From: Acetobacter suratthaniensis
Lineage (GTDB): Bacteria > Pseudomonadota > Alphaproteobacteria > Acetobacterales > Acetobacteraceae
NCBI RefSeq assembly: GCF_017377745.1
Contig: NZ_JAFVMG010000004.1
Coordinates: 62,001-126,000 of the forward strand
Length of the DNA: 64,000 bases
Direction of reading: 5' to 3'
Below the pieces are notes generated by a model. The model was given only the letters and a program-made list of their open reading frames with translations. It did no database searches and was not told where the DNA came from. Positions 58,719-64,000 of the stretch are shown piece after piece. Each line of letters opens with the position of its first letter. Positions within the stretch are counted from its first letter, which is position 1. Position numbers and translations under genes: made by a program.

Positions 58719-59468
58719 TTAATATGTATCGCCTATTTTCGGCTCTGTTCCGCCTGTCCGGCCTTTATCTCCGAAAGGTACAGGAGCCGGTAACGGCACC
58801 TGCGAAGACGGCGCGGAAGGAACCGGAGCCGCTGATGGTGCGGGTGCTGGCTGGGTCGTTCCCGGTGTTGGCTTCATACCCGGCGGGGCCACAAGCTGCT
58901 GCGTGCCATCCGGCGCGGGGGCATCGCCCGGTGCGGCCTGTGGCGTGCCTGAGGGCAGTACCGGCACCACGGGCGCTGCCAGTGGCAGCGGGGTGGGGGC
59001 GGTATCCTGCCCTTCGCAACGGACCATCCGCACATCGTAAAGCGGGCTTTCAAACACGCCCAAACCGGGTTCCGCCGCCAGCATCCAGCCATGAAAAGCC
59101 ACGCCATCGGGGTGGGTGTCGCGCAGGTCGAGCCACGCCGCAGCATCCGGGGCGAGGGTCGGGGGGCGGGTCAGACAACGCGCCACGCCAATTTCCAGAT
59201 TTTTATAATGTGCTGTGCCGCCAACCGGCACGGACAGCACCTCCACATGAGTATCGAGCTTGTCCAGCACGCGTACAACCGCGATGGTTTTACCCTGCCA
59301 TGTTTCAGCCGGATAAACCGCAGGCGGCGCCAGTGCAGCCCCCGCCGCCAGCCCCGACCCGCTGGCGAGGCCCAGAGCCAGCCCCCCTGCCAGCAACGCG
59401 CCGCCACCAGTCAGCACACCACGCAGGACACCATAACGGCCTTTCGGGCCAGCCATACGCGCGCTCAT
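58719..59468 (-). CDS. DUF2155 domain protein with a Pro/Ala-rich tail
   Basis: A 249-residue exported protein: an N-terminal hydrophobic segment (VLTGGGALLAGGLALGLASG), the DUF2155 domain (about residues 50-150: VRVLDKLDTHVEVLSVPVGG, YDVRMVRC and a Cys at ARCLTRPP) and a long Pro/Ala/Ser-rich tail. DUF2155 proteins are periplasmic and often encoded with mlaD and NDUFA12 in alphaproteobacteria, which is the layout here. The start overlaps the preceding small gene (ATGA). Function is unknown. Confidence 0.85.
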   Translation of the reverse strand: MSARMAGPKGRYGVLRGVLTGGGALLAGGLALGLASGSGLAAGAALAPPAVYPAETWQGKTIAVVRVLDKLDTHVEVLSVPVGGTAHYKNLEIGVARCLTRPPTLAPDAAAWLDLRDTHPDGVAFHGWMLAAEPGLGVFESPLYDVRMVRCEGQDTAPTPLPLAAPVVPVLPSGTPQAAPGDAPAPDGTQQLVAPPGMKPTPGTTQPAPAPSAAPVPSAPSSQVPLPAPVPFGDKGRTGGTEPKIGDTY

Positions 59469-59740
59469 GCACCCACCCGAGGAGACTGCAATGCCTGCAC
59501 CAGTTCAGCCAGCCGCTCACGCATGACCTGTTCGCTTACACCCATTAACACCGCATCCTCGAAAGCATCGGTCAAAACCTGCCGCACATCCTGCCAGTTT
59601 TCTTCCAGAACGCGGATTTTTTCCTGACACGAGACGGGCTGCCCGTCTTCCTGTGGCCAGATACGCAACGCTTCCATACTGCCTGTTTCCTGTATCAAAT
59701 CCGCAGCCCTACCGGGGAGCGCATCAAGGCGCGTCATCAT
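59465..59740 (-). CDS. Small helical protein between mlaD and the DUF2155 gene
   Basis: A 91-residue protein, mostly helical (CQEKIRVLEENWQDVRQVLT, SEQVMRERLAELVQALQS), with no signal peptide and no family I know. Starts at 59740 or 59737 overlap the end of mlaD, and its stop overlaps the DUF2155 start, so all three are translated as a chain. The tight overlaps and normal codon use make it a real gene. Confidence 0.65.
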   Translation of the reverse strand: MMTRLDALPGRAADLIQETGSMEALRIWPQEDGQPVSCQEKIRVLEENWQDVRQVLTDAFEDAVLMGVSEQVMRERLAELVQALQSPRVGA

Positions 59741-60257
59741 GACCGGACCCGGCATGATCCGCCGGGGTCTTGCCGGTGCGGGTCAGGGTATCCGTCACGG
59801 AAAAAATGAACTTGCTCAGTAGCTGTTCCAGACTGATGGAACCCTGCGTCTGGCTCACGGTGGCGCCGGGGCTGAGGGTTTTGTCATCCCCCCCCGGAGA
59901 CAGGGCGATATATTTACCGCCCAGCAGGCTGTCGCTGGTGATGATGGCCGCCGTATCATCGGACAGGTGCAGGTCGGGCCGCACGGTAAAGACCACATGG
60001 GCCTTGAAGGTCTGCGGATTGACGCTTTCCGATACGACATGGCCAACCGTAACCCCGGCCAACCGCACATCGGAGCCAATATCCAGCCCGTCTATATGAG
60101 AGAAATCAGCCCCGAGCTGATACCCATCACCCGTGCTCTTGCGCCCTTCGCCCACCACCGTGGCCACCAGCATAAGCACCAGCGCGCACAGCACGGCAGC
60201 ACCCGCTACCAGCTCGGCGATGTCGCGCCGCGATTTTTCCGCCATTGCAGAAGCCAT
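59724..60257 (-). CDS. mlaD: MlaD-type phospholipid transport protein
   Basis: MCE-domain component of the Mla retrograde phospholipid transport system, anchored in the inner membrane and facing the periplasm. The 177-residue protein has one N-terminal membrane helix (LVAGAAVLCALVLMLVATVV) and the MCE core: YQLGADFSHIDGLDIGSDVR, LAGVTVGHV, VNPQTFKAHV and SDSLLGGKYIALSPGG. The usual mlaF/mlaE genes are not next to it. NDUFA12 lies 55 bases upstream on the same strand. Confidence 0.9.
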   Translation of the reverse strand: MASAMAEKSRRDIAELVAGAAVLCALVLMLVATVVGEGRKSTGDGYQLGADFSHIDGLDIGSDVRLAGVTVGHVVSESVNPQTFKAHVVFTVRPDLHLSDDTAAIITSDSLLGGKYIALSPGGDDKTLSPGATVSQTQGSISLEQLLSKFIFSVTDTLTRTGKTPADHAGSGHDDAP

Positions 60258-60881: not shown

Positions 60882-62432
60882 ATGACAACCGCCACACACC
60901 CATGGAACGGTGTGCTGATGAGCACACTGGACGCCGCCGCCGACCCGGATGCGCCGCTCCGCCCCGTAACACTCCCCGCTGAGTGGGATACGGAGGCGGC
61001 TGCCGCTCTTGCACAGCTCGTTCCGGGCGACGATCCGATCGACCTTCCCACACTGGCCGATGGCTGGACACGCGTGTTCGCCCCGGACGGCGCCACCGCG
61101 CGTTCGCTGGTCTGGCTGCTGCTGACACGTCAGGCCGCGCCGACAGAAGCCGTCTGGCGCAGTGCGTTTGACCGGCCTCCGGGCTTTATCATCAACCTGG
61201 CGGCGTTTGTCTCGCCGGGGGAAGGCTTTGCCGCGCGTACCTTTGTCGCAGCGCTGCGGCTGGTCTGTTCGGTGCTGCGCCATACGGCAGAAAGCACGGC
61301 CAGCCTGCGCAATGGTGAGCTGCCGCTGCCAGACCTGTTCGCCCCCGCCACCGCACCGACAGCCAGCCAGCCCGCAACAGCCGCGGATGCGCCACCTCTG
61401 GTCGCGGGCGATATTCTGCTGACCAATCTCGATGCCTGTCTGGCCGGTGTGGGGCTGGATTATGATAGCGAGGACGGACGGGCCGCGGCCTGCGCCATTG
61501 CCGCACTCGCCACCCTGACCGCCCATGCCGGACGCGGCCCCGAAACCCTGCCCCTGCCGCCCGTCCGCACCGTTCTGCCCGGTCTGGGCGAGACCCTGCG
61601 CGCGGTCTGGGCCGAAGCGGCCGTGGAAACCGATACCCCGCTCGCCCCGGTTGAAACCGGCTTTTCGGCCTCCAACCCGGTCGATGGTATTCTGGGGGCA
61701 GAAGCCTGCGGGCTGGCTCCGGTTTTTTCCATGCTACGCCCGGATGGCCGCCTAGCTACCAGCACGCGCCAGCGGCTGGAAGCACGCGGCTTCACTACCG
61801 AAACCGCTCTGGCTGCGGCCCTTGCGGGGGAAACCGTGCTGCCTCTGCCCGGTGCTGGCGCACATCTGGCCATGTATCGTGCGCTGACCGGCTTTGTAGA
61901 CCGCATGCCCGCCCGCCCCGAAGCCCTGCCCGCCCCCGCGCGCCAGAAGCTCGAACGCGGCGCACGGCGCGCACTGTCTGCCCGGCATGGCGGCTTTACC
62001 CAGAAAACCAGCATTGGCGGCCACCGCCTGTTCATGCGTACCGGTGAATACGAAGACGGCACGCTGGGCGAGCTGTCGCTCTCTCCCACGCGGGAAAGCA
62101 GCATGGTGCGCGGCCTGATGGAAAGCTTCAGCGAAGCCGTCAGCATTGGTCTGCAATATGGTGCGCCGCTGGACGCCTTTGTGGATAACTTCGCCTATTC
62201 CTGCTTTGGCCCGGCGGGTACAGTCGAGGGAGACCCTGTGGCCTCCTACGCCACCTCCATGCTGGATTATGTGTTCCGCGCCCTGTCCGATACCTATCTT
62301 GGCAAGCGCCTGCCAGATGGGCCGCATCAGGACAGTCAGGCCGAGCCAGACCCGCTGCTGCCGCTTGACCTGCCCGGTGAGGATGATACCCCTTCAGGAC
62401 AGAGAAAGCGTGGCCTGCGGCTGGTCTGCTAA
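60882..62432 (+). CDS. Reduced class II ribonucleotide reductase (NrdJ)-like protein with TSCPD C-terminal domain
   Basis: A 516-residue protein. Residues about 370-485 match the C-terminal part of B12-dependent NrdJ (TSIGGHRLFMRTGEYEDG, LMESFSEAVSIGLQYGAPLD, SYATSMLDYVFRALSDTYLG). Upstream, NLDACLAGVGLDYDSEDGR (from residue 182) matches the NrdJ stretch NLGALLxxxGxPYDSDEGR, and LAPVFSMLRPDGRLATSTRQ resembles the region after the catalytic core. The radical-site motifs (NLCxE, NxC) and the CxxC tail are absent, and length is half of NrdJ. It looks like a reductase relative that has lost its core. Function unknown. Confidence 0.75.
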   Translation: MTTATHPWNGVLMSTLDAAADPDAPLRPVTLPAEWDTEAAAALAQLVPGDDPIDLPTLADGWTRVFAPDGATARSLVWLLLTRQAAPTEAVWRSAFDRPPGFIINLAAFVSPGEGFAARTFVAALRLVCSVLRHTAESTASLRNGELPLPDLFAPATAPTASQPATAADAPPLVAGDILLTNLDACLAGVGLDYDSEDGRAAACAIAALATLTAHAGRGPETLPLPPVRTVLPGLGETLRAVWAEAAVETDTPLAPVETGFSASNPVDGILGAEACGLAPVFSMLRPDGRLATSTRQRLEARGFTTETALAAALAGETVLPLPGAGAHLAMYRALTGFVDRMPARPEALPAPARQKLERGARRALSARHGGFTQKTSIGGHRLFMRTGEYEDGTLGELSLSPTRESSMVRGLMESFSEAVSIGLQYGAPLDAFVDNFAYSCFGPAGTVEGDPVASYATSMLDYVFRALSDTYLGKRLPDGPHQDSQAEPDPLLPLDLPGEDDTPSGQRKRGLRLVC

Positions 62433-62466
62433 CCCGCGCACCGCAACGATCAAGGGAAAAAACGCT

Positions 62467-62928
62467 ATGAGCACCCCCGAATCCCGCCTTCAGGCTCTGG
62501 GCATTATCCTGCCGGTGCCCGCCGCCCCGGTTGCCAATTATGTTGCCTGTGTGCAGACCGGCTCGACACTGGTCGTATCCGGCCAGCTGCCCCTGCTTGA
62601 TGGCGCCCTGTTCGCCACTGGCAAGCTGGGCGGCGCTGTCACGGTTGAAACCGCCGTGGAAGCCGCCCGTTACAGCATGATCAACGTGATCGCACAGGTA
62701 AAAGCCGCCATAGGCGATCTCTCACGCGTCAAGCGCGTGGTGCGACTGGGTGGTTTTATTGCCTGCACACCCGACTTTACGGCGCAGGCCACGGTCATGA
62801 ACGGCGCGTCCGATCTGGCCGTTGCCGTATTTGGTGATGCCGGACGCCACGCACGCTCCACCGTAGGCGTGCCGTCCCTGCCACTGGATGCCCCGGTGGA
62901 AGTCGAAGGACTGTTCGAAATCGCGTAA
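62467..62928 (+). CDS. RidA-family protein
   Basis: A 153-residue YjgF/Rid-family protein of the longer YjgH-like type: LGIILPVPAAPVANYVACVQ, VVSGQLPLLDGALFATGKLG, VKRVVRLGGFIACTPDF and RSTVGVPSLPLDAPVEVEG. The Arg before STVGVPSLP lies where RidA has its catalytic arginine, so deaminase-type activity is possible. The ATG at 62467 follows AAGGGAA, 34 bases after the ribonucleotide-reductase-like gene; the three genes to the right edge share orientation. Confidence 0.85.
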   Translation: MSTPESRLQALGIILPVPAAPVANYVACVQTGSTLVVSGQLPLLDGALFATGKLGGAVTVETAVEAARYSMINVIAQVKAAIGDLSRVKRVVRLGGFIACTPDFTAQATVMNGASDLAVAVFGDAGRHARSTVGVPSLPLDAPVEVEGLFEIA

Positions 62929-63015
62929 TGCCCGGCCTCCCATCCCCTCCGGGGTGGGAGCACGGTACCCACAGAAAGCGCCCACCAGAAAGCGCCCACA
63001 GGGAGCATGATCGTC

Positions 63016-64000
63016 ATGGCTGACTGGGCTGTTACCCTGCATGAGAGCATTCACGACATCCCACCCGCGCAGTGGGATGCCTGCGCCGGGCCGGATGCCC
63101 CTTTCATCAGCCATGCTTTTTTAAGCGCACTGGAAGACAGCGGCTCGGTCAGCCGCGAAACAGGCTGGATACCGCGCCACCTGCGCTTGCAAAGCCCCGA
63201 TGGGGGCCTTGCCGCCGTCTGTCCGGCCTATTTCAAAGACCATTCCTGGGGCGAATATGTGTTCGATCAGGGATGGGCACGCGCCTTTAACGCGGCAGGC
63301 GGACGCTATTACCCCAAACTGCAATGCGCCGTACCCTTTACACCTGCCCCCGGCCCCCGCCTGCTCGCCCACCCCAGCGCCCCACCAGAAACCCGCGCCG
63401 TGCTAGCCGATGCGCTCCGCCAGATCTGTGGCGATACGGGGCTTTCATCCGTCCATGTCACCTTTTGCCAGCCCGAAGAAAGCGCCCTGCTTAACGAGCG
63501 TGGATGGTTGCCACGCCTTGGTGTGCAGTATCACTGGCATAATCAGGGCTTTTCCAGCTTTGACGATTTTCTCGCCACTCTTTCCTCCCGCAAACGCAAA
63601 AGCATCCGACGGGAACGGCGCGAAGCCAATGCCTGTGGCCTGACTTTTGAAACCCTGCGCGGGAAAGCCATAACGGCTGAAGACTGGCGTGCCTTTTACG
63701 GCTTCTATCAGGACACCATCGACCGCAAATGGGGGCGTGCGTACCTGACGGACAGCTTTTTTCCGCTGCTATCCGAAAGGCTGGGCGATGCCGTTGTGCT
63801 GATGGTCGCCCGCCACGGCCAGACCCCGGTGGCCATGGCGCTGAATGTTCTGGGCGGCTCCACCCTGTTCGGGCGCAACTGGGGTTGCCGAGGCGAATGG
63901 CCATTCCTGCATTTCGAACTCTGCTATTACAGGGCAATAGATTTCGCCATCACACACGGTCTGGCACGCGTGGAAGCCGGAGCGCAGGGCGAACACAAAA
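63016..64000 (+). CDS. GNAT-fold, DUF482-like protein, 3' end outside the window
   Basis: About 328 codons are present and the frame is open at the window edge. It begins WAVTLHESIHDIPPAQWDAC, FISHAFLSALEDSGSV, then CPAYFKDHSWGEYVFDQGWA, and LSSRKRKSIRRERREANAC, the layout of the DUF482/peptidogalycan-type GNAT proteins of 370-400 residues. These are related to FemAB-like acyltransferases; the acceptor is unknown. I start at 63016, where GGGAGC is well spaced; an ATG at 63007 is in frame. About 50-70 residues lie outside. Confidence 0.85.
   Translation, partial: MADWAVTLHESIHDIPPAQWDACAGPDAPFISHAFLSALEDSGSVSRETGWIPRHLRLQSPDGGLAAVCPAYFKDHSWGEYVFDQGWARAFNAAGGRYYPKLQCAVPFTPAPGPRLLAHPSAPPETRAVLADALRQICGDTGLSSVHVTFCQPEESALLNERGWLPRLGVQYHWHNQGFSSFDDFLATLSSRKRKSIRRERREANACGLTFETLRGKAITAEDWRAFYGFYQDTIDRKWGRAYLTDSFFPLLSERLGDAVVLMVARHGQTPVAMALNVLGGSTLFGRNWGCRGEWPFLHFELCYYRAIDFAITHGLARVEAGAQGEHK

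What the first reader, a model, noticed from the sequence alone, without database searches (positions are those of the whole stretch)
60882..62928. Ribonucleotide-reductase-derived protein that has lost the catalytic core, paired with a Rid protein
The 516-residue protein keeps the C-terminal NrdJ domain and at least two shorter blocks recognisable from class II reductase, but lacks the radical-site Cys/Asn/Glu motifs and the CxxC tail. It is not a frameshift wreck: the frame is intact, codon use is normal and well-conserved blocks are kept in order. A shortened relative could have become a nucleotide or cobalamin-linked sensor, a NrdJ partner or a regulator of dNTP supply. The linked Rid-family gene, 34 bases downstream, and the GNAT-type gene may form one unit.
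Basis: partly seen in the sequence, partly recalled or inferred. Interest (0 to 1): 0.75.

Follow-up and report, generated by a model that had tools for sequence, protein, structure and literature searches.

The report
Conserved dead remnant of ribonucleotide reductase
A vitamin-B12-dependent enzyme that makes DNA building blocks lost its catalytic centre in an ancestor of the acetic acid bacteria, yet the shortened protein has been kept under strong selection at the same chromosomal spot, which points to an unknown second, non-enzymatic job.

Summary
In detail: 60882-62432(+) is an intact 516-aa gene, 34 bases before a Rid gene. It is a class II ribonucleotide reductase (NrdJ) reduced in place: in related classmates a full ~1240-aa NrdJ lies beside the same divergent NDUFA12 gene (26 of 38 loci). 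It aligns to NrdJ's C-terminal half (hhalign E 6e-69) but lacks the radical-site cysteine, both active-site redox cysteines, the PTGT motif and the cysteine tail. A homologue occurs in 288 of 299 family genomes, full NrdJ in 1, NrdB in 297. dN/dS is 0.05-0.14 in nine pairs. Two genomes without NrdB keep it; five with NrdB lack any form: not an obligate NrdAB partner. Nineteen genomes of twelve other family codes hold other degenerate NrdJ genes, 18 with NDUFA12 adjoining; the number of origins is not settled (AU p 0.204). The tail carries two short conserved motifs, one absent from 70 distinct full NrdJ. Best reading: a non-catalytic, binding or scaffolding pseudoenzyme with unknown partner. 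Rid is an old neighbour, not an obligate partner; the 'GNAT' gene is FemAB-like.

The parts
60882..62432 (+). 516-aa reduced NrdJ (class II ribonucleotide reductase relic)
60882..61175 (+). N-terminal module (residues 1-98), weakly similar and colinear to the NrdJ N-terminus; homology likely by position, not proven
   Evidence: hhalign E 0.011, probability 3.7%; nine control alignments E 0.31-0.84
61185..61931 (+). middle part (residues ~102-350), aligned to NrdJ from ~492 on; NrdJ ~157-490 with the finger loop and both active-site redox cysteines has no counterpart
   Evidence: hhalign; motif positions; motif search
61944..62336 (+). TSCPD region (residues 355-485), the best-conserved part; by position this is the class II C-terminal domain that PMC9669993 calls IscU-like (that equation is my inference)
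   Evidence: PF12637; AF2 pLDDT 90.5; conservation; PMC9669993 section 2.4
62352..62375 (+). PLLPLDLP motif in the tail predicted disordered (residues 491-498)
   Evidence: P.LP[LFG] in the last 120 residues: 61 of 65 distinct reduced proteins, 0 of 70 distinct full NrdJ, 0 of 24 other degenerate loci
62415..62426 (+). end motif LRLV (residues 512-515)
   Evidence: [LF][RKH][LVI]V in the last 14 residues of 65 of 65 distinct reduced proteins
62467..62928 (+). Rid-family gene (PF14588), 34 bases downstream
63007..64000 (+). FemAB-like gene (PF04339), runs past the window's end
   Evidence: continuation in L005
60313..60723 (-). divergent NDUFA12 gene, landmark of the NrdJ locus
59724..60257 (-). 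MlaD-like gene, second landmark (name from recall; it was not put through a family search)

Best explanation
The gene is the orthologue of alphaproteobacterial nrdJ, cut down in place by internal and terminal deletions in an ancestor of the Acetobacteraceae, presumably after class I NrdAB had taken over dNTP synthesis (the timing is inferred). It cannot reduce ribonucleotides (shown: catalytic motifs absent; inferred: no activity). It is kept as a pseudoenzyme (shown: purifying selection, near-universal presence). Most likely it works by binding (inferred): the conserved TSCPD domain, in the region tied to oligomerisation in full class II enzymes, forms the core, and a disordered tail with two short conserved motifs, one of them not seen in full NrdJ, docks onto an unknown partner that is not obligatorily NrdAB, Rid or NDUFA12.
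For: Same locus: NDUFA12 nearby in 26 of 38 full NrdJ loci, 24 of them within 2 kb and divergent (without the degenerate L213 and L216); MlaD within 1 kb of the reduced gene in 37 of 38 family loci. Homology: hhalign E 6e-69; all 46 PDB matches with E<=0.001 are reductase large subunits. One clade of 18 Acetobacteraceae TSCPD domains, 100/100. Match in 288 of 299 genomes, NrdB in 297 of 299, full NrdJ in 1 of 299. dN/dS 0.05-0.14 in nine pairs, against 0.06-0.25 for Rid and 0.07-0.19 for FemAB in five pairs each. Tail motifs. G279 and G282 have no NrdB match yet keep the gene.
Against: No partner, ligand or phenotype is known. Foldseek of the TSCPD domain alone gave nothing at E<=0.001; the first hit is a lipoate ligase chain (E 0.16), IscU appears at ranks 20 and 43 (E 0.54 and 0.79), so the IscU-like fold rests on the literature. 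A sister form in g12/g40 lacks the TSCPD domain, so that domain is not the only part worth keeping. Four g14 genomes, G003 and G265 have neither form. TM-scores of the whole model to reductases are low (at most 0.31). The tail pattern was chosen after the sequences had been seen.
Confidence: 0.6

Rival explanations
1. It is a regulator or accessory subunit of the class I enzyme NrdAB, for example a dNTP-dependent oligomeric inhibitor.
For: 297 of 299 family genomes have NrdB; the cysteine-rich C-terminal domain of a class II enzyme mediates dATP- and dGTP-induced oligomers (PMC5704485, abstract and passages).
Against: G279 and G282 have no NrdB match but keep the protein. Four g14 genomes, G003 and G265 have NrdB but neither form. 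Limits: both exceptions may be assembly effects, and NrdA was not ruled out in G282 (2 of 4 candidates scored).
Confidence: 0.15
2. NrdJ already had a second, non-catalytic role before it died, and all degenerate NrdJ genes of Alphaproteobacteria keep that one role.
For: Degenerate NrdJ in 19 genomes of 12 family codes besides f1, NDUFA12 adjoining in 18 of 19.
Against: No NrdJ segment is common to all: the f98 and f9 loci match only from position 922 on, the f115 loci match 2-169 and 490-930 and have no TSCPD match.
Confidence: 0.15
3. A slowly decaying relic without function.
For: Different parts lost in different lineages; dN/dS 0.55 in the f63 pair, 0.31 and 0.23 in the g12 and g40 pairs.
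Against: Nine pairs of the window's form at 0.05-0.14, like the neighbours; match in 288 of 299 genomes.
Confidence: 0.05
4. A divergent but active reductase.
For: Relationship to reductases in sequence profile and fold.
Against: No radical-site Cys, redox Cys, PTGT or Cys tail; no complete barrel in the model; NrdA and NrdB present.
Confidence: 0.01

Closest known systems
Alphaproteobacterial class II ribonucleotide reductase NrdJ (NCBIfam NF005736, PRK07562)
   Same: Same locus in many classmates, colinear homology, shared TSCPD domain
   Different: About 700 residues shorter; catalytic motifs and the zinc/cysteine tail lost; 139 bits against a cut-off of 1737
NrdJb of split class II enzymes (P. 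aeruginosa; PMC4520616, abstract and passages; PMC9669993 section 2.4)
   Same: A separately encoded protein with the class II C-terminal domain
   Different: NrdJb mediates dithiol exchange for NrdJa; here no cysteine is conserved and 298 of 299 genomes have no full NrdJ
Inactive herpesvirus reductase homologues such as HCMV UL45 (PMC5469499; title and start of abstract seen in the listing)
   Same: A reductase large-subunit relative described as inactive and doing something else
   Different: Viral; no link to this family was tested

Membership tests
Class II ribonucleotide reductase (NrdJ) | Radical-site finger-loop cysteine (N.C.E) | tested here: not met
   0 of 35 and 0 of 36 reduced rows; 38 of 38 and 34 of 34 full NrdJ, two of them in both sets
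Class II ribonucleotide reductase (NrdJ) | Active-site redox cysteines (HACF, CNLAS) | tested here: not met
   0 of 35 and 0 of 36 reduced rows; 38 of 38 and 33 of 34 full NrdJ for each
Class II ribonucleotide reductase (NrdJ) | Ten-stranded alpha/beta barrel | tested here: not met
   AF2 model: six strands of 3 or more residues before the TSCPD region; NrdJ ~157-490 without counterpart
Class II ribonucleotide reductase (NrdJ) | Score over the NF005736 cut-off | tested here: not met
   139 bits against 1737
Class II ribonucleotide reductase (NrdJ) | Adenosylcobalamin binding | not testable with these tools
   no binding data
Pfam TSCPD PF12637 | Score over the gathering cut-off | tested here: met
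   32 against 22.8 bits
IscU-like domain of class II C-termini (PMC9669993) | Structural match to IscU | tested here: inconclusive
   no PDB match at E<=0.001; IscU at E 0.54 and 0.79
Split-enzyme subunit NrdJb | Cysteine tail for dithiol exchange, and a catalytic class II partner in the genome | tested here: not met
   no six-Cys tail; no other TSCPD protein and no full NrdJ in the window's genome
Pseudoenzyme | Catalytic residues lost while the protein is under purifying selection | tested here: met
Pseudoenzyme | Demonstrated non-catalytic function | not testable with these tools
   needs experiments

The most novel reading that the evidence does not exclude
NrdJ has repeatedly been turned into a retained, non-catalytic protein in Alphaproteobacteria: 13 family codes (12 besides the window's own) carry degenerate NrdJ genes, nearly all at the ancestral NDUFA12 locus, with several different deletion patterns, some keeping two CxxC pairs of the zinc tail without the six-cysteine pattern. 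This would be a class of cellular reductase pseudoenzymes, of which the Acetobacteraceae protein is the most widely kept and has gained a new docking motif.
Probability: 0.5. Interest if true: 0.85.

Novelty: new variant of a known kind. Interest (0 to 1): 0.72.

Why it matters
Ribonucleotide reductase is thought of as a purely catalytic, essential enzyme (general knowledge). A cellular relative that lost catalysis but is held in nearly a whole bacterial family says that class II enzymes can carry, or easily gain, a second function. PMC9669993 states that no role of the IscU-like domain of class II enzymes has been reported; this protein presents that region without the catalytic barrel, which makes the question directly testable in culturable acetic acid bacteria.

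Tried and rejected
Partner of NrdJ: rejected, full NrdJ in 1 of 299. Obligate partner of Rid or NDUFA12: rejected, loci without them keep the gene. One origin of all degenerate genes: not settled. In the TSCPD tree (135 columns, bootstrap not settled) the 12 non-family degenerate rows need 5 label changes, of which starred branches force 2; all degenerate rows together need 5 after the two longest rows, L280 and L055, were left out, but one clade is not rejected (AU p 0.204). The AU test of the non-family rows alone did not finish. A tree of the barrel part joins all ten degenerate rows (support 99) on very long branches; I set it aside as long-branch attraction, though it speaks for one origin. 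phmmer against PDB sequences: nothing; PHROGs: nothing. hmmalign columns place several degenerate proteins poorly, so motif counts are taken from the alignment-free search; there a loose N.C.E occurs in 2 of 24 degenerate loci (L267, L278) and C[ST]E and AC[NH] once each; the L267 one lies before the finger-loop position. Frame lengths of two loci differ between (G573 996 or 811, G479 1018 or 812); I did not resolve this. A likeness of PLLPLDLP to sliding-clamp-binding peptides came from recall only and was not tested.

Notebook entries 2 and 3 hold two statements that later calls overturned or that go too far: that all matches outside the family are full NrdJ, and that G282 has no NrdA (only 2 of its 4 candidates were scored).

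Literature. No paper held all terms of these searches: TSCPD + ribonucleotide reductase; class II ribonucleotide reductase + Acetobacteraceae; Gluconobacter + transposon + essential genes + ribonucleotide reductase; Acetobacteraceae + vitamin B12-dependent ribonucleotide reductase. Of the listings I saw titles and starts of abstracts of the rows shown (20, 2, 20, 7 and 19), none on such a bacterial protein; of these papers only PMC4520616, PMC5704485 and PMC9669993 were opened, for passages and, in the last, section 2.4.

Full report
Observation. The window gene 60882-62432(+) codes 516 aa without a stop. A Rid gene (62467-62928) follows after 34 bases, and 78 bases further a FemAB-like gene that leaves the window; NDUFA12 stands divergently upstream, 158 bases away. 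Pfam finds only TSCPD; the NCBIfam model of full alphaproteobacterial NrdJ scores 139 bits against a cut-off of 1737.

The genome. So I call its family Acetobacteraceae and its class Alphaproteobacteria; the G genomes themselves carry only codes. G000 (99.96% complete) has one NrdA-type gene with an adjoining NrdB and no second TSCPD protein.

Distribution in the family. Of 299 genomes of the order, all with family code f1, 288 have a match (61 of 65 genera; at most five candidates scored per genome, frames seen for the listed rows only). Full NrdJ passes its cut-off in 1 of 299, G282 (two candidates scored per genome); NrdB in 297 of 299, the exceptions being G279 and G282. A profile search of the 11 genomes missed gave 6 matches. 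Five, in genera g12 and g40, are a different reduced form at the same locus, without TSCPD and with more of the barrel region (profile to the window's family E 7e-27, to NrdJ E 2e-22). The sixth, in G265, is a weak match (26 bits) within another reductase-like gene. So 293 of 299 have one of two reduced forms, if every match is one; four g14 genomes, G003 and G265 have neither, though all six have Rid and NrdB.

What it is. hhalign of 35 reduced proteins (A1) against 32 full NrdJ gives E 6e-69 to NrdJ 492-1105. The N-terminus aligns colinearly but weakly (E 0.011, probability 3.7%; controls E 0.31-0.84). NrdJ ~157-490, which holds both active-site redox cysteines and the finger loop (positions 198, 476, 487 of the profile), has no counterpart. 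In an alignment-free search 38 of 38 full NrdJ of class genomes have HACF, N.C.E, CNLAS, PTGT and the six-Cys tail; in the second set of 34 (33 loci and the G282 gene; two are the same genes as in the first set) each motif is in 33 or 34. The reduced rows have none, apart from one PTGT and one C[ST]E among the 35 of A1. The AF2 model of the window protein (36 sequences, pLDDT 82.8, pTM 0.65) is poorly determined from residue 486 on. All 46 PDB matches with E<=0.001 are reductase large subunits; the best is the R. sphaeroides enzyme 7b9q, E 2e-6, with low TM-scores (0.31 and 0.20).

Reduction in place. I chose 40 NrdJ-type loci, most from different family codes, out of the listed rows. Two, L213 and L216, proved degenerate. 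Of the other 38, 26 have NDUFA12 within the stretch, 24 of them within 2 kb and divergent; Rid is downstream on the same strand in 6, FemAB in 3, one of these weak and 5 kb off. Twelve of the 38 show no NDUFA12. In 38 reduced loci of the family (the broken G021 locus left out), MlaD lies within 1 kb in 37, NDUFA12 in 24, Rid in 30, FemAB in 25. The 18 reduced TSCPD domains in the tree form one clade, 100/100. So the window gene is best read as nrdJ itself, reduced, with Rid and FemAB as old neighbours.

Selection. Nei-Gojobori dN/dS is 0.05-0.14 in nine pairs of reduced genes; in five pairs each, Rid 0.06-0.25, FemAB 0.07-0.19, NDUFA12 0.08-0.21, MlaD 0.08-0.19. These are rough: dS is near or above 1 in several pairs, and the neighbours were taken as whole stop-to-stop frames.

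Other degenerate NrdJ. In 385 class genomes full NrdJ passes in 222. Genomes with an NrdJ-like match but a poor full-length score were searched again with every candidate scored (29 genomes). I read 19 genomes of 12 family codes besides f1 (f9, f40, f63, f98, f100, f104, f115, f121, f146, f151, f161, f173), as 20 loci because the G595 gene lies in two places; a second partial copy in G514 was not counted. G592, G606, G617 and G669 have like scores but were not read. NDUFA12 adjoins within 1 kb in 18 of 19 genomes; the nineteenth, G514, has Rid and FemAB downstream. Frames run from 278 to 1229 aa. None of these 20 loci, nor of four of g12/g40, has HACF, CNLAS, PTGT or the six-Cys tail. Six loci of f63, f146, f9 and f151 keep two CxxC pairs; that the missing cysteines are the redox pair is my reading, using the assignment of PMC5704485 (passages). 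Of eight pairs two are saturated; the other six, two of them g12/g40, have dN/dS 0.09-0.55. In the TSCPD tree L213 is sister to a full NrdJ (98/91) and the non-family degenerate rows need 5 label changes (2 forced), but one clade of all degenerate rows is not rejected (AU p 0.204), and the barrel tree joins them. Repeated conversion is my reading; it is not shown.

How it may work. Cysteine chemistry is unlikely: no window residue's column has Cys in more than 17 of 36 rows. The TSCPD region is best conserved (mean majority fraction 0.69 against 0.40-0.57 elsewhere). PMC9669993 (section 2.4) describes the domain after the barrel of long class II enzymes as IscU-like, of unreported role, and suggests oligomerisation; that it is the TSCPD region is my inference. 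My domain model (47 sequences, pLDDT 90.5) found no PDB match at E<=0.001. The tail has two motifs: P.LP[LFG] in 61 of 65 distinct reduced proteins and 0 of 70 distinct full NrdJ, 0 of 24 other degenerate loci; and [LF][RKH][LVI]V at the end in 65 of 65. The patterns were chosen after seeing the sequences. A motif gained after the zinc tail was lost suggests a new binding partner (inference).

Partners. NrdAB is not obligate: G279 and G282 have no NrdB match and keep the gene. G279 has another reductase-like gene of 762 aa. G282 has a full NrdJ that groups with that of G649 (95/94 and 98), as if gained sideways; whether it has NrdA was not shown. Both could be assembly effects.

Verdict. A catalytically dead, conserved NrdJ relic. 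Its identity is well supported, its function unknown; my best guess is a binding or scaffolding pseudoenzyme.

Noticed in passing
L065 4412-8008 and L045 3843-5378 (G282): The only family genome with a full NrdJ has no NrdB match and keeps the reduced gene about 26 kb away; the full NrdJ groups with that of G649.
   Followed up: partly
L083 2135-5491 (G021): Reduced gene, Rid and FemAB are each broken into two or three frames in this genome; decay or sequencing error.
   Followed up: no
L267, L268 (G595): A degenerate NrdJ lies in two frames about 2.1 Mb apart on one contig, one half by NDUFA12, the other by Rid.
   Followed up: partly
L142: A contig titled Solirubrobacterales bacterium 70-9 carries an Acetobacteraceae-type locus; probably a mixed assembly. 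L130 and L144, titled Asaia bogorensis, are only 40% and 37% identical to the window protein and look misnamed.
   Followed up: no
window 59465-59755(-): A 96-aa ORF next to MlaD has matches in most loci but no Pfam match over a cut-off.
   Followed up: no
G019, G265, G279, G314, G360, G571 and others: A second reductase-like gene, frames about 580-870 aa (1163 in G314), matches NrdJ around 396-604 and mostly 860-916; in several genomes it occurs besides an NrdA-type gene.
   Followed up: no
L281 (G514:C13): A second partial copy of the f151 degenerate NrdJ on a 6.3-kb contig.
   Followed up: no
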